In this document: in pieces, positions 24,813 to 59,303 of the stretch
Layout: the number at the start of each line of letters is the position of its first letter
How positions within the stretch are numbered: position 1 is the first letter of the stretch
Assembly (NCBI RefSeq): GCF_000426845.1
Contig: NZ_AUGD01000006.1
Coordinates: 248,001-312,000 of the forward strand
DNA: 64,000 nt
Source: Bradyrhizobium sp. in8p8
GTDB lineage: Bacteria; Pseudomonadota; Alphaproteobacteria; Rhizobiales; Xanthobacteraceae
Direction: 5' to 3'
Translations under genes and position numbers: made by a program
Notes under the pieces: model-generated
Seen by the model: the letters and a program-made list of their open reading frames with translations, nothing else
Told to the model about the DNA's origin: nothing
The model's database searches: none

Positions 24813-27800
24813 TCAATGAAAATCCCGCGACGGCGGCAGGATGCGGACGTTGCGGGGATGGCGGATTTTCTGCGCAGGCATGTCTGCGAGCGCGCGAGGG
24901 TCTTCGTTGAGTGGTTCGACCACGGTGGCGCCTGCCGGCAGCGGATGCTTGCGGCTTAGCGCATCGTTTGCAAGACCGACCAGATCATGCGAGCGGTCGA
25001 CCATGCGCTGGGCAATGAGATGCGTCACCTTCTCGGGACTGCTCTGGATGTAGCCTTCGACCAGGATGAGGCGTGCGCCCATCACCTCCTTGCGGTACTG
25101 CTCCATGATCTTGGGCCACACCACGACGTTGGCGATGCCAGTCTCGTCCTCCAGCGTCATGAACACCACGCCGCTGGCGCTTCCCGGCCGCTGGCGGACC
25201 AGGACCACGCCGGCGCAGCGGACGCGGCGCCGCTCGTTCTCATGACTGATCTCCTTGCAGGCGACGATGCGCTCGCGCGTAAACAGCTCGCGCAAGAACT
25301 CCATCGGGTGGCCCTTCAGCGACAGGCGGATGGTCTGGTAGTCCGCGACGACCTGCTCGGCGCGCGGCATCGCCGGCAACGGCCTTGCGCCTTCGTCCGG
25401 CTGCTCGCGCGCGGCCGCCGCCTCGAACAGCGGCAGCGGCACGTCGTCGGGCAGCCGCCGCACCTGCCACAGCGCCTCGCGACGGTCGAGCCCCAGCGAA
25501 CGGAAGGCGTCGGCATCCGCCAAGAGGATCAGTGCGCGCTTGGGCAGGCCGGTGTCGCGGGCGAAATCTTCGAGCGAGGTGAAGGGACGGCGGTTGCGGG
25601 CGGCGACGATGCGATCGGCCCAGTCCCCTCTCTTGTCATTCCGGGCCGATGCGTCAGCATCGAGCCCGGAGCCCAGTCCTCCAGGCAAATGCGGTTCGAT
25701 GGATTCCGGGCTCGCGCCAAGTGGCGCGCCCGGGAATGACGACTGGGAGCGCTTCAACCGCTCCTCATCTTCATCCAGCCAGTGAAAGCCGTCGATCTGA
25801 CGGAAACCCAGGCGAACGGCGCAGTATCTACCACTCCCCTGCTCCAGCGTGTTCTGCACAAAGCTATAGGACACGTCTATGTCGCGCACCTCGACGCCGT
25901 TCTTGCGGGCGTCGCTGACGATCTGCGCCGGGGCGTAAAAGCCCATCGGTTGCGAGTTCAACAGACCGCAGCAGAAGGCGTCGGGGTGATGGTACTTCAG
26001 CCACGAGGAGATGTAGACGAGTTGCGCAAAGCTCGCGGCGTGGCTCTCCGGAAAGCCGTAGGAACCAAACCCCTTGATCTGCTCGAAGCAGCTTCGGGCG
26101 AAGTTGGGATCGTAGCCGCGCGCCACCATGTTGCCGACCAGCTTTTCTTCGTATTGACCGATGGTGCCGACATTGCGGAAGGTCGCCATCGAGCGGCGCA
26201 GGCCATTGGCTTCCTCGGAGGTAAATTTTGCCGCCTCGATGGCAATGCGCATCGCCTGCTCTTGAAATAGGGGAACCCCCTTCGTCTTGTGCAGGACCTT
26301 GTAGAGTTCGTCCGCGGGGCCATGCTCAGGCGACGGCGAGGGATAGCTCACCTTCTCAAGTCCGTTCCGCCGTCGCAGATAAGGATGCACCATGTCGCCC
26401 TGAATCGGTCCCGGACGCACGATCGCGACTTCGATGACGAGATCGTAGAAAGTCCTTGGCTTCAGGCGCGGCAGCATGTTCATCTGGGCGCGGCTCTCGA
26501 CCTGGAAAACGCCGAGCGACTCTCCTCGCTGCAGCATTTGATAGACTTCGTCGTCATCCTCCCCCTTGATATCCGCAAGCGCGTAACGCTTACCCTTGTG
26601 CTGATCGATCAAGTCAAAACATTTCCTGATGCAGGTCAGCATGCCCAGCGCGAGCACGTCGACCTTCATCATGCTGAGCGCATCGACGTCGTCCTTGTCC
26701 CATTCGATGAAGGTGCGGTCGTCCATCGCGGCGTTGCCGATCGGAACATAGGTATCGAGCCGGTCCTGCGTGAGCACGTAGCCGCCGACATGCTGGGAGA
26801 GATGGCGTGGAAATTCGATCAGCTCGGTCGCAAGCTCGACCGCGAGGTTGATCATGGGATTGTTGGGGTCGAGTCCGGCCTGCCTGACCTGCATGTCGTT
26901 GAGGCCCTTGCCCCAGCTGCCCCACACCGTATCGGCGAGTGCGGCGGTGACGTCCTCGGTCAGGCCGAGCGCCTTGCCGACGTCGCGGATGGCACTGCGC
27001 GGACGATAATGGATGACGGTGGCGATGATCGCGGCGCGATGGCGGCCATAGCGGCGATAGACATATTGCATCACCTCCTCGCGTCGCGAATGCTCGAAAT
27101 CGACGTCGATGTCGGGCGGCTCCAGCCGCTCCTTGGAGATGAAGCGCTCGAACAGCAGATCGACCTTGGTCGGATCGACCGAGGTGACGCCGAGCACGTA
27201 GCACACGGCCGAGTTCGCCGCCGATCCTCGTCCCTGGCACAAAATGTTCTGGCTGCGCGCGTATTGGACGATGTCGTGCACGGTGAGGAAGTAATGCGCG
27301 TATTTCAGCTCGGCGATCAGCGCGAGTTCCTTGTTGAGCGTTGCGCGCAGCTTGTCGCCGATCTTACCGTCGAAATATTTGTCGACGCCCGCCCAGGTCA
27401 GATCCTCCAGATGCCCTTGCGCGGTCTTGCCCGGCGGCACCGGCTCATCCGGATACTGGTATTTGAGCTGGTCGAGCGAGAAATCGACCTTGCCCGCAAA
27501 ACGCATGGTCTCCGCGATCGCATCAGGGAAATCGCGAAACAGCCGCGCCATTTCTCGCGGTGTCTTCAGAAAACGCTCGGCATTGGCTTCCAGCTTCTTC
27601 CCAACCGCCGCGATCGTGGTCTTTTCCCGGATGCAGGTGAGCACATCCTGGAGAGGCCGGCGGCGGGGATCGTGATAGAGCACCTCGTTGGTCGCGAGCA
27701 GCGGCACTTTGGCTCTTGCTGCGAGATCGTCGAGCCGCGCCAGGCGACGCCGGTCGTCGCCGCGATAGATCAGGCTCGCCGCCAGCCACACACCCGCGGC

Positions 27801-28271
27801 ACGGCTATCCCTAAGCTTTGCGAGAACATCCAGCGCCTGCGGGTTGTCGAAGCGATGCGGCAGGGTCAGGACCAGAAGCTGACCTTCCGAAAACTCAAGG
27901 AGGTCGGCGAAGGTGAGACGGCATTCGCCTTTCTCGATCCGCGTGAGGTCGTCGCCGCGCTTGCCCCGGGTGAGAAGCTGGCAGAGCCGGCCATAGGCCG
28001 CGCGGTCACGCGGATAGACCAGAATGTCGGGCGTGCCGTCGACGAAGACGATGCGCGCGCCGATCAAAAGCTTCGGCTTGTGCAGCACCTCATCATTGTC
28101 GAGTTCCTTGTAGGCCCGCACCACGCCGGCGAGCGTGTTGTGGTCGGCAATGCCGATCGCGGAGATGCCGAGAATGCTCGCCTGATGAACATAGGCGCGC
28201 GGGTCCGAGCCGCCACGCAGGAACGAGAAGTTCGTGGTGATGCCGATCTCGGCATAAGCGGGCGAGATCAT
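24813..28271 (-). CDS. dnaE2: Error-prone DNA polymerase DnaE2 (ImuC)
   Basis: C-family DNA polymerase of the SOS mutasome, 1152 aa, which with ImuA and ImuB carries out error-prone translesion synthesis. The PHP domain is at about 1-210 (AEIGITTNFSFLRGGSDP, IADHNTLAG). The polymerase palm contains PDIDVDFEHSRREEV near residue 388 with the catalytic acids. The C terminus has an OB-fold (VRCAGVVLVRQRPGSASGVV). The ATG at 28271 overlaps the imuB stop by four bases (ATGA); upstream sequence in this frame is imuB antisense-phase coding and is not part of the protein. Residues about 844-879 are encoded by an inserted palindromic repeat. Confidence 0.95.
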   Translation of the reverse strand: MISPAYAEIGITTNFSFLRGGSDPRAYVHQASILGISAIGIADHNTLAGVVRAYKELDNDEVLHKPKLLIGARIVFVDGTPDILVYPRDRAAYGRLCQLLTRGKRGDDLTRIEKGECRLTFADLLEFSEGQLLVLTLPHRFDNPQALDVLAKLRDSRAAGVWLAASLIYRGDDRRRLARLDDLAARAKVPLLATNEVLYHDPRRRPLQDVLTCIREKTTIAAVGKKLEANAERFLKTPREMARLFRDFPDAIAETMRFAGKVDFSLDQLKYQYPDEPVPPGKTAQGHLEDLTWAGVDKYFDGKIGDKLRATLNKELALIAELKYAHYFLTVHDIVQYARSQNILCQGRGSAANSAVCYVLGVTSVDPTKVDLLFERFISKERLEPPDIDVDFEHSRREEVMQYVYRRYGRHRAAIIATVIHYRPRSAIRDVGKALGLTEDVTAALADTVWGSWGKGLNDMQVRQAGLDPNNPMINLAVELATELIEFPRHLSQHVGGYVLTQDRLDTYVPIGNAAMDDRTFIEWDKDDVDALSMMKVDVLALGMLTCIRKCFDLIDQHKGKRYALADIKGEDDDEVYQMLQRGESLGVFQVESRAQMNMLPRLKPRTFYDLVIEVAIVRPGPIQGDMVHPYLRRRNGLEKVSYPSPSPEHGPADELYKVLHKTKGVPLFQEQAMRIAIEAAKFTSEEANGLRRSMATFRNVGTIGQYEEKLVGNMVARGYDPNFARSCFEQIKGFGSYGFPESHAASFAQLVYISSWLKYHHPDAFCCGLLNSQPMGFYAPAQIVSDARKNGVEVRDIDVSYSFVQNTLEQGSGRYCAVRLGFRQIDGFHWLDEDEERLKRSQSSFPGAPLGASPESIEPHLPGGLGSGLDADASARNDKRGDWADRIVAARNRRPFTSLEDFARDTGLPKRALILLADADAFRSLGLDRREALWQVRRLPDDVPLPLFEAAAAREQPDEGARPLPAMPRAEQVVADYQTIRLSLKGHPMEFLRELFTRERIVACKEISHENERRRVRCAGVVLVRQRPGSASGVVFMTLEDETGIANVVVWPKIMEQYRKEVMGARLILVEGYIQSSPEKVTHLIAQRMVDRSHDLVGLANDALSRKHPLPAGATVVEPLNEDPRALADMPAQKIRHPRNVRILPPSRDFH
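25635..25740. repeat. Palindromic repeat inserted in frame in dnaE2
   Basis: 106-bp element made of nested inverted repeats. The outer arms are GTCATTCCGGG and CCCGGGAATGAC; internally there are two smaller hairpins, TTCCGGGC...GCCCGGA and a CTCGCGCC/GGCGCG stem. It shares the CCGGG-ATGAC core of the 24634 element. The dnaE2 frame stays open through it, adding a Pro/Gly/Ser-rich stretch (SSFPGAPLGASPESIEPH and onward) between conserved polymerase segments. Confidence 0.8.
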
Positions 28272-29860
28272 GCGAAAAGACCGTGCACATACCAGCCGGG
28301 AGAAGCGGGCTTGCCGTCGCCGTCGAACACTTCCCCCTCGTAGAGACCGTCGCGAAAGATCCAGAAGCGCAGGCCTTCGGCATCCTCGATGCGGAAATAG
28401 TCCCGCGTCAGCTGCTTGCCGTCCTGCCGCCACCACTCCATCGCGATGCGCTCGGGCCCTTCCACCCGCACCACTGCATGCAGCGCGCGCCGCCAGGTGA
28501 ATTGATGCGGCGGACCATCCGGCACGGTCGCGAAAGGCACCTTGATCGGCTCCGGCTTGTCGAACAGCCGCAAGGGACGCAGCGGCGGCTCGCTCTCGGT
28601 GCGCGCCGGCCATGTGGCCTGCATGGCGGCGGCGAGATGATGCTGCGCCTGTGCGGCGAGCACCGCACACTCGGGGATATGAGTGTCCTGCGGCAGATGT
28701 ACGACGACACGCTTTCCGCCGATGCGCGCGGCGATGCGGTCGATCAGCGCAGCAAGCTCGTCATTGTCATGGACATGGGCATCGAGATCGCGCTGCTCCT
28801 GTACCACGATCTCGGTGCGGCTCGCCGACAGCCGTATCATGTCGAAGCCAAAGCCGGGGTCCAGCGGATCGGCGAGCGCATCGAGACGCTCGCGGAACAG
28901 CCGGTCGATCACGGCGCTTCGCGTCACCGGACGTCCGGTCTCGACCGTGATCGCGCGCACCGCGCCATCGGTGCGGAAGAACGCGGCCTCCAGACGCCGC
29001 GCGCCCTTGCCCTGCTTCTCCATGGATGCGATCAGCGTGTCCGCCAGCCGCGACAGCGTCATCGCGATCATAGTGTCGGTCGCGATCGGTTCGGCAAAGC
29101 GCTTCTCGACGATGTAGTCGGGCAACGGCTTGCGCGGGCTGATCGGCGCATCGCCCTGCCCCAGCGCATGCGCGAGCAGCGTGGAGAAGCGCGCGCCGAA
29201 CCGCGCCGTGATCTCGCTCGGCGCGCGCGAGGCGACATCGCCGATGATTTTCAGACCGGCGCGGCGCAGACCGGTGGTGATCGCCTCGCCCGCCCCTAGC
29301 GCGGACACCGGAAATGAACTGATCGCGACCGCCTCCTCGCCATCGGCCACGATGGTGCCCGTGGCCTGCCGCGTCAGCGTGCGTGCACAGACCGAGGTGC
29401 CGGCAATCGCGGCACTGACGGCAAAGCCCTGCCGGCCGAGCGCCCGGACCAGCGTCCGCAACAGTGCGGCTTCGCCGCCGAACAGATGTGCGCAGCCGGT
29501 GATGTCGAGGAACAGCCCGTGCGGCGGATCGAGCGCCACCAGAGGTGTGAAGCGGTCGCACCAGTCGGCGATATCGCTGAGCGTCTTCGCATCGGCCACG
29601 GTATCGGCGTCGAACACCTTCAGGTCAGGACACATCGCACGCGCATTGGCCAGAGGCTGGCCAATGTACAGGCCGAGGCGCTCGGCGGCCTCGTCCAGCG
29701 CATGAATCAACAGCGCATTGTTGTCCTTGATGACGACGATGCTCGGCTCGTTACTCTTATGCAGACCGACTTTCCCAAAGAACCGTTGGATCCGATCGAT
29801 GGGCAGGCGCGGCAGCCACAGGCTGAGAATACGTCGACGGCTCATTGAACTGGCACTCAT
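28268..29860 (-). CDS. imuB: ImuB, Y-family polymerase-like mutasome subunit
   Basis: Catalytically degenerate Y-family DNA polymerase homologue, about 530 aa, that bridges DnaE2 and the beta clamp in the SOS mutasome. The N-terminal palm region (RILSLWLPRLPIDRIQRF), fingers, and HLFGGEAALLRTLVRALG segment match ImuB. GLKIIGDVASRAPSEITARFG is the helix-hairpin-helix, and a little-finger domain follows. The C-terminal part contains RPLRLFDKP, resembling a clamp-binding peptide. Start taken as ATG 29860, with a GGAATGGAA site; ATG 29845 (MSRRRIL) is an alternative. Either start overlaps imuA by about 90-105 bases. The stop overlaps dnaE2 (ATGA). Confidence 0.93.
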   Translation of the reverse strand: MSASSMSRRRILSLWLPRLPIDRIQRFFGKVGLHKSNEPSIVVIKDNNALLIHALDEAAERLGLYIGQPLANARAMCPDLKVFDADTVADAKTLSDIADWCDRFTPLVALDPPHGLFLDITGCAHLFGGEAALLRTLVRALGRQGFAVSAAIAGTSVCARTLTRQATGTIVADGEEAVAISSFPVSALGAGEAITTGLRRAGLKIIGDVASRAPSEITARFGARFSTLLAHALGQGDAPISPRKPLPDYIVEKRFAEPIATDTMIAMTLSRLADTLIASMEKQGKGARRLEAAFFRTDGAVRAITVETGRPVTRSAVIDRLFRERLDALADPLDPGFGFDMIRLSASRTEIVVQEQRDLDAHVHDNDELAALIDRIAARIGGKRVVVHLPQDTHIPECAVLAAQAQHHLAAAMQATWPARTESEPPLRPLRLFDKPEPIKVPFATVPDGPPHQFTWRRALHAVVRVEGPERIAMEWWRQDGKQLTRDYFRIEDAEGLRFWIFRDGLYEGEVFDGDGKPASPGWYVHGLFA

Positions 29861-30581
29861 CACAATTCCATTCCATGATCCACCGGCCGCACGGGCCATG
29901 ACGATTGCGGAGGAGTTCAGCATCGAAGCGTGGCGCACCCCAGGCACTCCATGCTGCCCCCGGCGGCGAATGCGCCGCGCGCAGCATCCATCGTGTCTCC
30001 GCGGTCGAGGGCAGCGGCTGCGCGGCCATGCGCAACATCAGGCCGACGACGCCGGAGCCTTGCGCGGCCAGCGTCAGCTTGCGGCTCGCCACCGGATCGA
30101 ACTGCTTGATATCGCCCCAGAGCTCGAGCACGACAGCGCCCAGTGCGTCGCAGGCAAGCGCATCGGCCGAGGTGCGCAGCGCGCTCTCGACATCGGCGGC
30201 ACGCACCATCACCACGCGACGCGGATCGAGGCCGAGTTCGGCGAGTCCGCTCATCGACAGCGCGCCGGTTTCGATATCCGAAAAATCCTGCCGCACCCAC
30301 AGCAGCGGCCGACGCGCTGAGACGCGCCCCGCAAGTCCCATGACAAACCCTGTCGCGGCAGCACCCTGACGTCCTTCGCAAAACACCTCGTGGATCGCCG
30401 CGCGCGCAAGCCCGCCCTTCAGCGCGCTGTCCGCCTCGCTATGGCCGAGCGCGACGCGCTCGTGCTGATGCACGACCGCGGTCTCGATGCGCTCGATCTG
30501 GCCGCGCAAGATTGCAAGCGCGCTTCCACGTGCGGAGGCGCATGATCCGCCAAAGTGTGAGCGGTTTGGCGACAAGATCAT
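29757..30581 (-). CDS. imuA: ImuA, RecA-like mutasome accessory protein
   Basis: First gene of the imuA-imuB-dnaE2 operon, 274 aa. ImuA is a RecA/SulA-like protein needed for induced mutagenesis. LRGQIERIE near residue 28, IHEVFCEGRQGAAATGFVMG in place of the RecA ATP-binding region, PLLWVRQDFSD, and the C-terminal GPCGRWIMEWNCDECQF are characteristic. The ATG at 30581 lies in a palindromic repeat (30541-30582), so the first about 13 residues come from that element. A downstream non-ATG start is possible and would remove them. A LexA box lies 137 bases upstream. Confidence 0.88.
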   Translation of the reverse strand: MILSPNRSHFGGSCASARGSALAILRGQIERIETAVVHQHERVALGHSEADSALKGGLARAAIHEVFCEGRQGAAATGFVMGLAGRVSARRPLLWVRQDFSDIETGALSMSGLAELGLDPRRVVMVRAADVESALRTSADALACDALGAVVLELWGDIKQFDPVASRKLTLAAQGSGVVGLMLRMAAQPLPSTAETRWMLRAAHSPPGAAWSAWGAPRFDAELLRNRHGPCGRWIMEWNCDECQFNEPSTYSQPVAAAPAHRSDPTVLWESRSA

Positions 30582-30582
30582 G
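30541..30582. repeat. Palindromic repeat overlapping the imuA start
   Basis: 42-bp imperfect palindrome: outer arms CATGATC and GATCATG, inner arms CGCCAAA and TTTGGCG, around AGTGTGAGCGG. It resembles the abundant Bradyrhizobium-type repeat with the core GATCC-AAAAGTGTGAAGCGGTTTT-GATCATG (from memory). It provides the ATG assigned to imuA. Confidence 0.75.
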
Positions 30583-30598
30583 TGCCCTCTTAAAAAGA

Positions 30599-30648
30599 AG
30601 AGCGCGATCGGACGCAAAACCGGCGACCACTTTTGCTGATCGCGCTCT
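30599..30648. repeat. Palindromic repeat between imuA and the LexA box
   Basis: 50-bp element with perfect 11-bp outer arms (AGAGCGCGATC / GATCGCGCTCT) and inner GCAAAA / TTTTGC around CCGGCGACCAC. It matches in form another abundant family whose core is GCAAAACCGG-CCACTTTTGC. It sits in the imuA leader, 17 bases upstream of the previous repeat, and could form a stable hairpin in the imuA 5' untranslated region. Confidence 0.75.
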
Positions 30649-30717
30649 GCATGCCCGCCGCTCCTCAGAAATTTGATGCCGTGGTCTTCAAAAGAAGAAC
30701 CAGCAGCTGGCCCATTT

Positions 30718-30732
30718 GTTCATGATATGTTC
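30718..30732. promoter_or_regulatory. LexA box (SOS operator) in the imuA / radical SAM divergent region
   Basis: GTTCATGATATGTTC is a perfect match to the alphaproteobacterial LexA operator GTTC-N7-GTTC. It lies 82 bases before the radical SAM gene start and 136 bases before the imuA ATG, between divergent genes, and overlaps an AT-rich stretch suitable for promoters. It is well placed to repress both imuA-imuB-dnaE2 and the rSAM-udgX pair until DNA damage. Confidence 0.85.
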
Positions 30733-30814
30733 TAATATAAAGCTAACGGTCGCCACAGAGTCAATCGAATTGGCGCACTTTCAGATTCACGAGCTGAATC
30801 AAGAGGATTCCTCC

Positions 30815-32050
30815 ATGGACGTACAACGCAAGCTGGAGATTCTGGCGGATGCCGCCAAATACGACGCGTCCTGCGCCTCCAGCGGCACCGAAAAGCGGGA
30901 TTCCAGTGATCGCAAGGGCATGGGCTCGACCGCGCCCGGCATGGGGATCTGCCATTCCTACGCGCCGGACGGCCGCTGCATCTCGCTGCTCAAGGTGCTG
31001 CTGACCAACGCCTGCAATTACGATTGCCTCTATTGCGTCAACCGCGCCTCCTCCAATGTACCGCGCGCCCGCTTCACCATCGACGAGATCGTCAAGCTCA
31101 CGCTCGACTTCTACCGGCGCAATTACATCGAAGGCCTGTTCCTCTCCTCCGGCATCATCCGTAGCCCTGATTACACGATGGAGCAGGTCGTCAGCGTCGC
31201 GCGCAAGCTGCGCGAAGAGCATCATTTCCGCGGTTACATTCACCTGAAAACCATTCCCGAAGCCGACGATGCGTTGATCGCGGAGGCCGGCAAGTATGCC
31301 GACCGCCTCTCCATCAACATCGAGATGCCTGAGGAAACCAGCCTGCAGCAATTCGCGCCGCAGAAGAATGTTCGCGCGATCCGCCGCACCATGGGCCGGT
31401 TGCGGCTGAAGCTAGACGAGGCCGAGGACAGCCATAGCGCAAAGACGAGAGCCAAGCCGCAGCGTTTCGCACCCGCTGGCCAGAGCACGCAGATGATCGT
31501 CGGCGCAGACGCGGCCTCCGATCAGACCATTCTCCACACCAGCGCCAATCTCTACGGCGCCTACCGGCTGCGGCGCGTTTATTACTCCGCCTTCAGTCCG
31601 ATCCCCGACGCCAGCCGCGCTTTGCCTCTGGTACAGCCGCCCTTGCTCCGCGAGCATCGGCTCTACCAGGCCGACTGGCTGATGCGGTTCTACGGCTTCG
31701 ACGTCGGAGAGATCGTCGATGGCAGCGCGATGCTGCCGCTCGACATCGACCCCAAGCTCGCCTGGGCGCTGCGCCATCGCGACCGCTTCCCGCTCGACGT
31801 CAACCGCGCCAACCGCGAAGAGCTGCTGCGCGTGCCCGGCTTCGGCACCAAGGCGGTCGAACGCATCATTGCGACGCGGCGCACCACCACGATCCGCGTG
31901 GCCGATCTCGCGCGGCTGCACGTGCCCCGCAACAAGGCACTGCCGTTCATCATCCTCAGCGACCACCGCCCCTCTCCGCATCGTCTCGATGCCGCCGGAC
32001 TGATCGAACGGTTCAAGCCAAAAGCGACACAGCTGGGATTTGGCTTCTGA
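30815..32050 (+). CDS. Putative DNA modification/repair radical SAM protein (UDG-linked family)
   Basis: Radical SAM enzyme, 411 aa, of the family I know as rSAM_link_UDG (TIGR03916), which is nearly always next to UdgX-type genes; its reaction is unknown. The cluster motif TNACNYDCLYC places Cys67, Cys71 and Cys74. Additional cysteines at 20, 46 and 55 precede it (GMGICHSYAPDGRC). A basic segment lies near 220-245. The C terminus ends in a helix-hairpin-helix DNA-binding motif (VNRANREELLRVPGFGTKAV), so it probably acts on DNA. AGAGGA precedes the ATG at 30815. The stop overlaps the udgX start by one base. Confidence 0.9.
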   Translation: MDVQRKLEILADAAKYDASCASSGTEKRDSSDRKGMGSTAPGMGICHSYAPDGRCISLLKVLLTNACNYDCLYCVNRASSNVPRARFTIDEIVKLTLDFYRRNYIEGLFLSSGIIRSPDYTMEQVVSVARKLREEHHFRGYIHLKTIPEADDALIAEAGKYADRLSINIEMPEETSLQQFAPQKNVRAIRRTMGRLRLKLDEAEDSHSAKTRAKPQRFAPAGQSTQMIVGADAASDQTILHTSANLYGAYRLRRVYYSAFSPIPDASRALPLVQPPLLREHRLYQADWLMRFYGFDVGEIVDGSAMLPLDIDPKLAWALRHRDRFPLDVNRANREELLRVPGFGTKAVERIIATRRTTTIRVADLARLHVPRNKALPFIILSDHRPSPHRLDAAGLIERFKPKATQLGFGF

Positions 32051-33492
32051 TGCAATACATCATCCTCGACACCGAAACCGATTTCGACGGCTGGCGCAAA
32101 GCCGCGCGTAGCCTCGTGCTTCACCACGTGCGGCCCAGCGACGTCACCTGGAGCGTGCAAGGCCGTGAAGCGGAGTTGTTCGCACCGCCCTCGCCATCTC
32201 CGATCCTCGAGGTGAACGACGCCACCTTCACCGTCTCGACAAAGTTCATCGAGCTTGCGAAGGCCGCAATCCTGCATCGCGATGCCGAGCGCTTTGCGGT
32301 CCTCTATCGGCTGCTCTGGCGATTGAAGGACAATCACGACCTCATCGAGGTCGCGACCGACCCTGATGTCGCACAGGTCACTGCCATGGCGAAGGCGGTC
32401 TATCGCGACGAGCACAAGATGCATGCCTTCGTGCGCTTCCGCGAGATCGGCCGGGAACGCCAGGCGCATTACGTCGCATGGTTCGAACCGGATCATCACA
32501 TCGTCGAGCTCGCCGCTCCCTTCTTCGCCAAGCGCTTTGCCGACATGCCCTGGTCGATCCTGACGCCGGACCTCTGCGCGCATTGGGATGGCCATGCACT
32601 TTCATTCACATCCGGTGTCAGCAAGAGTGAGGCTCCGAGCGAAGACCGGCTCGAGGAAACCTGGCGGCGCTATTATGCCAGCATCTTCAATCCGGCCCGC
32701 CTCAAGCCGAAGGCGATGCAGGCCGAGATGCCGAAGAAATATTGGAGGAACCTGCCGGAGGCTTCGATCATTAAGCCTTTGATCGAGGACGCCGAGCGCA
32801 TGACCGGTGCTATGATCGCCAATGCCGCAACCGATCCGCACAAGCCTCAAAAGCGACCGGAGGCTCCGATGAAACGCAAGACTGTCGGCGACGATCTCGA
32901 AGCGCTTCGCGAGGAGGCTGCGCATTGCCGCGCGTGCCATCTCTACAAGGATGCGACCCAGACCGTGTTTGGCGAGGGTCCGAAATCCGCCAATATCATG
33001 CTGGTAGGCGAGCAGCCCGGTGACAAGGAAGACCTCGCCGGCCATCCCTTTGTCGGTCCGGCCGGCCAGATGCTCGATCGCGCGCTGGAGGAAGCCGGCG
33101 TCGACCGCAAGAAGGTCTATGTCACCAACGCGGTCAAGCACTTCAAATTCGTGCCGCGCGGAAAAATCCGCCTGCATCAGAAACCGAACACACCTGAGAT
33201 CCGGGCGTGCCGACAATGGTATGAGCGGGAAGTTGCGGCACTCCAGCCCGATCTCATCGTTGCAATGGGCGCCACTGCCGCGCAAAGCGTGTTCGGCAAG
33301 ATCACTCCGATCGGCAAGAACCGCGGCCGGCTCATCGACCTTCCCGACGGTCGCAAAGCGCTCGTGACGGTGCATCCCTCATATCTGCTGCGACTGCCGG
33401 ATCCGGAAGCCAAGGTGCTGGAGTATCGACGCTTTGTCGAGGATTTGAAGATCGCCGCCGGCTTACAGAGGAAGTCCGCACGAGCTGCGTAA
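32050..33492 (+). CDS. udgX: DUF4130-UdgX fusion: uracil-DNA-binding glycosylase-like protein
   Basis: 480 aa fusion. Residues 1 to about 255 are the DUF4130 domain (IILDTETDFDGWRKAAR) that partners the radical SAM family; about 280-475 is a family-4-like uracil-DNA glycosylase domain. Motif 1 is GEQPGDKEDLAGHPFVGP, and HPSYLLRLPD holds the second catalytic loop. The UdgX-specific loop reads RGKIRLHQKP (371-378), with Arg374 and His376 where Mycobacterium UdgX has KRRIH; that His forms a covalent bond to the abasic sugar after uracil removal. Cys293, Cys296 and Cys387 are candidate Fe-S ligands. Co-transcribed with the radical SAM gene. Confidence 0.92.
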   Translation: MQYIILDTETDFDGWRKAARSLVLHHVRPSDVTWSVQGREAELFAPPSPSPILEVNDATFTVSTKFIELAKAAILHRDAERFAVLYRLLWRLKDNHDLIEVATDPDVAQVTAMAKAVYRDEHKMHAFVRFREIGRERQAHYVAWFEPDHHIVELAAPFFAKRFADMPWSILTPDLCAHWDGHALSFTSGVSKSEAPSEDRLEETWRRYYASIFNPARLKPKAMQAEMPKKYWRNLPEASIIKPLIEDAERMTGAMIANAATDPHKPQKRPEAPMKRKTVGDDLEALREEAAHCRACHLYKDATQTVFGEGPKSANIMLVGEQPGDKEDLAGHPFVGPAGQMLDRALEEAGVDRKKVYVTNAVKHFKFVPRGKIRLHQKPNTPEIRACRQWYEREVAALQPDLIVAMGATAAQSVFGKITPIGKNRGRLIDLPDGRKALVTVHPSYLLRLPDPEAKVLEYRRFVEDLKIAAGLQRKSARAA

Positions 33493-58994: not shown

Positions 58995-59303
58995 GGGCCT
59001 CTCCGGAGTTCGTCGGCCAATGGCCGAGGGCAGATCGATCTTGAAGGCGATCCCGGCCGCAGGGAATACGCCCTTGGCGGCCGGTGTGCACGCCGATGTT
59101 CGCGGCATCCCGCTGCTGCAGCCGGCCGAAACCGACGATGCTCCGTCAACGCACTGAAATACCTCGACTTCCTAGCGCGGGGCGCTCGCCTGCCGGACCA
59201 ACGGCGTTAACGTCACGTCCACCTTCCTCCTGCAAAGTTCTGCATCAGTTCCAACCAACCCCGCTCACCGGCCATTTCAGGCCATTCCGGGCCGCTGAAC
59301 ACC
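58995..59303. other. Divergent intergenic region, eutB / chemoreceptor
   Basis: 309 bp between eutB (minus, from the TTG start) and the chemoreceptor gene (plus). It should carry both promoters. No repeat, operator, cobalamin riboswitch fold or general-stress promoter was recognised. Confidence 0.4.

What the first reader, a model, noticed from the sequence alone, without database searches (positions are those of the whole stretch)
30718..30732. One LexA box shared by the mutasome operon and a radical SAM-UdgX operon
A perfect GTTC-N7-GTTC lies between imuA-imuB-dnaE2 (minus) and the rSAM-udgX pair (plus). This suggests that uracil/abasic-site handling by UdgX and an uncharacterised radical SAM enzyme is induced together with error-prone translesion synthesis, as a single damage-response module. 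The motif match and gene order are seen directly; joint regulation is inferred.
Basis: partly seen in the sequence, partly recalled or inferred. Interest (0 to 1): 0.78.

Follow-up and report, generated by a model that had tools for sequence, protein, structure and literature searches.

The report
One LexA switch, two repair operons
In Bradyrhizobium and its relatives a single LexA repressor site sits between the error-prone DNA synthesis genes and a uracil-capturing repair pair, so DNA damage very likely switches both on together; that each set answers to LexA was already known, but the shared site appears to be a lineage-specific fusion.

Summary
The box is real: GTTCATGATATGTTC at 30718-30732. 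The bare motif is no evidence (1.55 expected per window; 176 in the genome); comparison decides. A matrix trained on boxes of rSAM-udgX operons not next to imuA, from other alphaproteobacteria, scores the site 33.0 bits; the next best in the window scores 11.7. Of 104 alphaproteobacterial rSAM loci, 98 carry a perfect box within 130 bp (0.0015 expected per locus), mostly a private one. In 25 loci (24 besides the window) rSAM diverges from imuA with one box and no second one between it and rSAM; they cluster in the rSAM tree. The box is imuA's: 26 of 30 imuA loci not next to rSAM have the same TTGAC promoter and box. So rSAM-udgX probably came to lie beside imuA, lost its own operator and uses imuA's. 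Joint induction is inferred; rSAM's promoter is weak and not located. LexA control of this kind of UDG operon and of imuA-imuB-dnaE2 is in print (PMC8565304, passages). New here: the shared operator, its ancestry and lineage, natural deletions, and an insertion at imuA's start codon in this strain.

The parts
30718..30732 (+). LexA operator GTTCATGATATGTTC, shared by the two divergent operons
30736..30741 (-). -10 element of the imuA promoter (TTTATA on the minus strand, 17-bp spacer), next to the operator
   Evidence: my reading of the alignment; the scan prefers the overlapping TATATT with a 19-bp spacer in the window. Inferred from conservation
30759..30764 (-). -35 element of the imuA promoter (TTGACT on the minus strand); GAGTCAA invariant in the 19 aligned divergent loci
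29757..30581 (-). imuA; likely start ATG 30581-30579 inside the insertion (open frame reaches TTG 30617)
   Evidence: (NF033429 E 2.3e-10, 40.7 bits, below its cut-off of 150)
28268..29947 (-). imuB (ORF limits; true start not determined)
   Evidence: IMS, IMS_C
24813..28274 (-). dnaE2 (imuC), error-prone DNA polymerase
   Evidence: NF004225, 1560.5 bits, cut-off 939
30815..32050 (+). radical SAM protein TIGR03916 (rSAM_link_UDG); weak C-terminal helix-hairpin-helix match (HHH_5 21.8 bits, below its cut-off of 27)
32050..33492 (+). DUF4130 (TIGR03915) fused to a UdgX-type uracil-DNA binding domain (TIGR03914)
30535..30649 (.). insertion of two back-to-back hairpins (net about 110 bp) between imuA's native ATG (30652-30650) and its coding body

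Best explanation
GTTCATGATATGTTC is a LexA operator that was imuA's own and now represses two divergent operons: imuA-imuB-dnaE2 (translesion mutasome) and rSAM-(DUF4130-UdgX). LexA bound there would cover imuA's predicted start site and the -10 of the best-scoring rSAM promoter candidate in 19 of 25 shared loci. After damage, RecA filaments provoke LexA self-cleavage (established pathway) and both operons are derepressed from one site. In an ancestor of the Bradyrhizobium group the rSAM-udgX operon, elsewhere under its own LexA box, came to lie head to head with imuA and lost its private box. Shown: the site, the gene order, the lineage distribution, the boxes of each operon in unlinked genomes, and the absence of a second box. 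Inferred: LexA binding, joint induction, rSAM's promoter, the order of events, and the role (UdgX capturing uracil or AP sites while DnaE2 synthesises with low fidelity).
For: Site score 33.0 bits with a matrix trained without the shared clade. 98 of 104 alphaproteobacterial rSAM loci have a perfect box within 130 bp, against 0.0015 expected per locus (loci related by descent, at least two pairs with the same protein). The motif changes with lineage, as LexA specificity does (foreign motifs recalled): CTGTN8ACAG in 7 of 12 betaproteobacterial loci, TGTTCN4GAACA in 2 of 4 Verrucomicrobia. In the family survey 18 of 29 full-length rSAM genes are divergent from imuA with one box; the other 11 are unlinked, each with a private box in the opposite sense, 24 to 43 bp upstream of the aligned start. 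One group of the rSAM tree holds all 24 full-length shared loci. The same type of imuA promoter and box in 26 of 30 imuA loci that are not next to rSAM. No second site on the rSAM side in 25 of 25 shared loci: best score 2.6 bits, training boxes 12.5 to 33.9. One LexA gene, with a box upstream.
Against: No binding or expression data. rSAM's promoter scores weakly: 6.6 bits in the window against 13.4 for imuA, and in 6 of 25 loci the best candidate's -10 does not overlap the box. L085, inside the shared tree group, keeps the imuA -35/-10 block but has neither the box nor a visible imuA (MAG, 488 bp upstream). Relatives without rSAM keep the operator and the sequence on its imuA side (L161, L162, L164), so conservation there does not prove that rSAM uses it. 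In 4 of 30 imuA loci no perfect box was found within 450 bp. In 7 of 7 gammaproteobacterial rSAM loci, 5 of 12 betaproteobacterial and 2 of 4 verrucomicrobial ones none of the motifs tried is perfect.
Confidence: 0.85

Rival explanations
1. The operator controls only imuA-imuB-dnaE2. rSAM-udgX lost its private box in this lineage and escaped SOS control, being expressed from a weak unregulated promoter that happens to lie beside it.
For: Box and strong promoter are imuA's; relatives without rSAM keep the same block; rSAM's promoter is weak and not located; L085 keeps rSAM without a box.
Against: The operator ends 82 bp before rSAM's ATG, and the 50 bp past GAGTCAA show no conserved promoter; in 19 of 25 loci the -10 of the best rSAM candidate overlaps the box; nearly all other alphaproteobacterial rSAM loci are boxed (98 of 104 in all), so escape of a whole clade would be exceptional.
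Confidence: 0.12
2. Chance: a motif that occurs 176 times in the genome lies here by accident.
For: 1.55 expected per window; 176 in the genome.
Against: 33.0-bit score against 11.7 for the next best in the window; a near-identical 15-mer at the same place in the divergent relatives.
Confidence: 0.005
3. The box is bound by LexA but the two operons are induced to very different degrees or times; overlapping promoters exclude each other, so the mutasome is favoured and rSAM-udgX gets a low or late pulse.
For: Predicted promoter strengths differ; in Caulobacter two genes with identical LexA boxes have different kinetics, and the paper's title puts this down to intrinsic promoter strength (PMC12700426, passages).
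Against: No measurement; a refinement of the best explanation rather than an alternative to it.
Confidence: 0.35

Closest known systems
SOS-regulated UDG operon COG1573-COG4277 (Bacteroidetes; reported for Verrucomicrobia and Alphaproteobacteria), PMC8565304 and its references 7 and 65
   Same: A uracil-DNA glycosylase gene paired with a partner and predicted to be under LexA; that paper also predicts imuA-imuB-dnaE2 under a LexA motif (passages read). That COG4277 is the rSAM family seen here is recalled, not tested.
   Different: In the passages read the two are listed as separate targets and no shared divergent operator is mentioned. The alphaproteobacterial report it cites (da Rocha 2008) is not held and was not read.
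imuA-imuB-dnaE2 mutasome cassette under LexA (Caulobacter and others)
   Same: Gene order, SOS control, damage-induced mutagenesis cassette (PMC1839093 and PMC6120978, passages).
   Different: Here the operator also faces rSAM-udgX.
UdgX (Mycobacterium smegmatis; activity also shown for Bradyrhizobium diazoefficiens according to PMC10359453)
   Same: GEQPG motif, histidine of the R-loop (GKIRLH here, KRRIH there), HPS..LR motif (HPSYLLR here); 6ajo matched at E 2e-57.
   Different: Fused to DUF4130 and paired with a radical SAM gene. Which B. diazoefficiens protein was assayed was not checked (paper not held).
SOS gene neighbourhoods with SplB-like radical SAM, DUF4130 and UDG (PMC3765255)
   Different: No operator analysis in the passages read; the best structural matches of the rSAM model are lipoyl synthase and HydE, and SplB is not among the 50 rows shown.
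uvrA-ssb of E. coli, two divergent SOS genes sharing one LexA box (recalled, no call)
   Same: One operator between two divergent repair genes.
   Different: Unrelated genes and a different LexA motif.

Membership tests
Alphaproteobacterial LexA operator | direct repeat GTTC-N7-GTTC | tested here: met
Alphaproteobacterial LexA operator | conserved position in promoters of orthologous genes | tested here: met
Alphaproteobacterial LexA operator | a LexA in the genome, itself boxed | tested here: met
   (box read by eye)
Alphaproteobacterial LexA operator | bound by LexA, derepressed by damage | not testable with these tools
   needs ChIP or EMSA and RT-qPCR
imuA-imuB-dnaE2 mutasome | three genes in order on one strand | tested here: met
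   DnaE2 over its cut-off; ImuB identified by Pfam IMS domains; ImuA only at E 2.3e-10, below its NCBIfam cut-off (40.7 of 150 bits)
imuA-imuB-dnaE2 mutasome | intact imuA translation start | tested here: inconclusive
   insertion at the start codon, replacement ATG with a plausible ribosome site
UdgX | score over the curated cut-off of TIGR03914 | tested here: met
   339.9 bits, cut-off 189.95
UdgX | motif A GEQPG | tested here: met
   87 of the 89 related ORFs found (127 loci searched, 38 without such an ORF) have GEQPG
UdgX | R-loop with the cross-linking His (H109) | tested here: met
   His aligned with the His of the R-loop of 6ajo
UdgX | R-loop reading KRRIH letter for letter | tested here: inconclusive
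   reads KIRLH: K, R and H kept, two positions changed; the GKIRLH form occurs in 16 of 89 ORFs
UdgX | covalent capture of AP-DNA after uracil excision | not testable with these tools
   reported for UdgX in PMC10359453 (abstract, passages)
TIGR03916 radical SAM | score over the curated cut-off and the CxxxCxxC motif | tested here: met
   562.7 bits, cut-off 343.5; C67, C71, C74 invariant in the 93 rows of A2
Spore photoproduct lyase (SplB) | closest structural relative in the PDB | tested here: inconclusive
   not among the 50 rows shown; top rows are lipoyl synthase and HydE

The most novel reading that the evidence does not exclude
The rSAM/DUF4130-UdgX pair is a working accessory of the mutasome: UdgX caps uracils or AP sites that arise while DnaE2 synthesises, and the radical SAM enzyme, which has three further invariant cysteines and a lipoyl-synthase-like fold, repairs, modifies or releases the capped site. 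Sharing one operator fixes their dose together.
Probability: 0.2. Interest if true: 0.8.

Novelty: new variant of a known kind. Interest (0 to 1): 0.5.

Why it matters
UdgX's physiological role is called largely unknown by its discoverers (PMC10359453, passages), and I found no tested function for the paired radical SAM enzyme or DUF4130 in the papers seen. A shared operator with the mutasome says when the pair is needed: during damage-induced, error-prone synthesis. It also gives an easy genetic system: one operator, two operons, in Bradyrhizobium and relatives, plus natural mutants that have lost rSAM or both genes.

Tried and rejected
Bare motif count as evidence: rejected, not above chance. 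A retained private rSAM box in the shared clade: looked for with a matrix, best score 2.6 bits in 25 loci. Locating rSAM's promoter by conservation: failed, because the block next to the operator is also kept where rSAM is missing and the promoter scores are weak and not consistent in place. Anti-phage defence role: no PADLOC match at E 0.01 for either protein. Relatives of rSAM in the PDB by sequence: none at E 0.01. A first model from 12 sequences was poor (pLDDT 67.6), a second from 93 was good (85.6). SplB did not appear among the 50 rows, which excludes nothing. The insertion at imuA as a repeat family: only two partial relatives in the genome, of 46 and 30 bp; the second-hairpin pattern occurs once, in itself; the first-hairpin pattern occurs once in the window; a shorter pattern is not above chance (3 found, two of them in the insertion, 4.32 expected). 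Literature: searches gave no paper, in their listings or the passages read, that describes one LexA box shared by imuA and this rSAM-udgX operon. Several listings were capped (for example 20 of 147, 15 of 1,400, 8 of 21). Only openly licensed papers are held, and da Rocha 2008, Erill 2006 and 2016 and Chembazhi 2017 are not, so this is no proof of absence. The terms looked for in PMC13384398 and PMC10776899 do not occur there.

Full report
Observation. GTTCATGATATGTTC stands at 30718-30732. To its left, on the minus strand, lie imuA, imuB and dnaE2; to its right a radical SAM gene of family TIGR03916 and a gene that fuses DUF4130 (TIGR03915) to a UdgX-type domain (TIGR03914). The bare pattern means nothing by itself: 2 matches in the window with 1.55 expected and 176 in the genome.

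Is it a LexA operator? I trained a matrix on 62 distinct boxes upstream of rSAM genes that are not next to imuA, from other alphaproteobacteria. It gives the site 33.0 bits; the next best place in the 64-kb window has 11.7, and the other perfect motif, at 59237, has 6.9. By its 15 bases the site ranks first of the 100 motif places that one search listed out of 176. The genome has one LexA match over the cut-off, with a perfect box about 100 bp upstream, read by eye.

Is the rSAM-udgX operon under LexA in general? In the family survey (119 genomes, the window's own among them) 29 genomes have an rSAM gene over the cut-off. All 29, and one fragment (L060), have a perfect box within about 125 bp upstream: 18 of the 29 are divergent from imuA with a single box, and 11 have no imuA in the 1.5 kb upstream and a private box in the opposite sense, 24 to 43 bp before the aligned start. 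In a class-wide survey (289 genomes; 18 with rSAM, one of them the window's own) 16 of the other 17 loci have such a box, and none shows imuA in the 1.5 kb seen, though L065 has an imuB-like stretch on rSAM's strand at its far end. Taking all 127 loci together, 98 of the 104 that I class as alphaproteobacterial have a perfect box in the window -130 to +8, against 8 matches in 747 kb of flank, or 0.0015 expected per locus. The loci are related by descent, and at least two pairs carry the same protein. Of the six without, three (L090, L142, L144) have a box with one mismatch near the usual place; L064, L085 and L099 have none there (L099 has only a one-mismatch match that overlaps its start codon). 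The motif changes with the lineage: CTGTN8ACAG in 7 of 12 betaproteobacterial loci, with four more at one mismatch; TGTTCN4GAACA in 2 of 4 Verrucomicrobia; no perfect match in 7 of 7 gammaproteobacterial loci. Both foreign motifs are recalled.

Whose operator is it? From the 119 family genomes I chose 30 in which imuA is not next to a full rSAM gene: 11 with an unlinked rSAM and 19 without one. ImuA was found in 29 of them, giving 30 loci. In 26 of 30 a perfect box lies within 450 bp upstream of imuA, always in the same sense and preceded by TTGAC (TTGACTC in 21 of 26); 4 of 30 have none there. The same block lies in the divergent loci: GAGTCAA is invariant in the 19 aligned. In the window I read it as TTGACT (30764-30759), 17 bp, TTTATA (30741-30736), then the box (30732-30718); the scan prefers the overlapping TATATT at 19 bp (13.4 bits). 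So the operator and the strong promoter are imuA's. rSAM's own promoter could not be located: the best candidate scores 6.6 bits in the window, and in 19 of 25 shared loci the -10 of the best one overlaps the box.

History. In a quick tree of 126 rSAM proteins (drawn with a midpoint root) the 24 full-length loci with the shared box fall in one group of 27 (SH-aLRT 92, under the tool's mark of 95). The other three are two contig ends (L086, L087), both with a box, and L085, a MAG contig that keeps the promoter block but no box and no visible imuA. Two more genomes have rSAM divergent from imuA but with separate boxes: Methylopila capsulata (L089) and Henriciella pelagia (L130). The likely course, an inference, is that rSAM-udgX, once under its own box, came to lie beside imuA in an ancestor of the Bradyrhizobium group and lost that box; between the shared box and rSAM no second site scores above 2.6 bits in any of 25 loci. 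Later losses are visible. In a genome of the same genus, G105, no rSAM was found, and its DUF4130-UdgX gene (400 residues seen before the locus ends) now stands directly divergent from imuA. G019 keeps only pieces of udgX there. G108 keeps only the first 30 or so residues of rSAM.

What the proteins do. The UdgX domain matches Mycobacterium smegmatis UdgX (6ajo, E 2e-57) with GEQPG, the histidine of the R-loop (GKIRLH for KRRIH) and HPSYLLR. PMC10359453 (start of abstract and passages) says that UdgX excises uracil and binds the abasic site covalently, that activity was shown in Bradyrhizobium diazoefficiens, and that the physiological role is largely unknown. The radical SAM protein has the CxxxCxxC cysteines and three more invariant ones (C20, C46, C55) in the 93 sequences aligned. 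Only residues 1-293 were really compared; a helix-hairpin-helix further on is a weak match. An auxiliary Fe-S cluster is a guess from this. The pair plausibly caps uracil or abasic sites while DnaE2 synthesises; PMC8565304 likewise suggests that SOS-regulated UDGs address misincorporation by error-prone polymerases (passage).

What is known. PMC8565304 (passages) predicts LexA control of a COG1573-COG4277 UDG operon and of imuA-imuB-dnaE2 in Bacteroidetes and says SOS control of the UDG system was reported in Verrucomicrobia and Alphaproteobacteria. PMC3765255 (passages) links DUF4130, radical SAM proteins and UDGs with SOS neighbourhoods. I found no description of the shared operator in the searches named under Tried and rejected, but the key primary papers are not held.

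Complication in this strain. In eight relatives aligned, imuA's native ATG is followed by a few bases and then by its conserved body. In the window the corresponding ATG (30652-30650) is followed by about 110 extra bases that fold, as single-stranded DNA, into two back-to-back hairpins (z -6.05). The native frame stops after 20 codons, and imuA's frame gets a new ATG (30581) with GAGG before it, inside the insertion. Whether imuA is still well translated is unknown.

Verdict. The site is a LexA operator (near certain), imuA's by origin, and very probably serves both operons; joint induction remains to be measured.

Noticed in passing
window 30535-30652: About 110 bp with two hairpins inserted right after imuA's native start codon; the native frame stops after 20 codons and a new ATG with a ribosome-binding sequence lies inside the insertion.
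   Followed up: partly
L161 (genome G105, same genus): No rSAM was found in the genome and the DUF4130-UdgX gene stands directly divergent from imuA, so UdgX can be kept without its radical SAM partner.
   Followed up: partly
L163 (G019), L060 (G108): Remnants beside imuA: pieces of udgX in one, the first 30 or so residues of rSAM in the other.
   Followed up: partly
L085: MAG contig inside the shared tree group that keeps imuA's promoter block but has no LexA box and no imuA in its 488 bp.
   Followed up: no
L089 Methylopila capsulata, L130 Henriciella pelagia: rSAM-udgX divergent from imuA-imuB-dnaE2 but with separate boxes for each side; possible intermediates or independent meetings.
   Followed up: partly
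L065 (G263): An imuB-like stretch (52% identity, E 1.6e-17) lies about 1.3 kb upstream of rSAM on the same strand, so another kind of linkage may exist there.
   Followed up: no
window 30815-32050 (residues C20, C46, C55): Three invariant cysteines besides the radical SAM motif in 93 sequences; the model resembles lipoyl synthase, which has an auxiliary cluster (recalled).
   Followed up: partly
L102, L104, L110, L118, L121, L127, L128 (gammaproteobacteria): None of the LexA motifs tried is perfect upstream of rSAM; L118 has CTGTN8CCAG, one mismatch.
   Followed up: no
L062 (G000:C11:210349-210885): A second UDG-family stretch in the genome, 127.7 bits to TIGR03914, below its cut-off.
   Followed up: no
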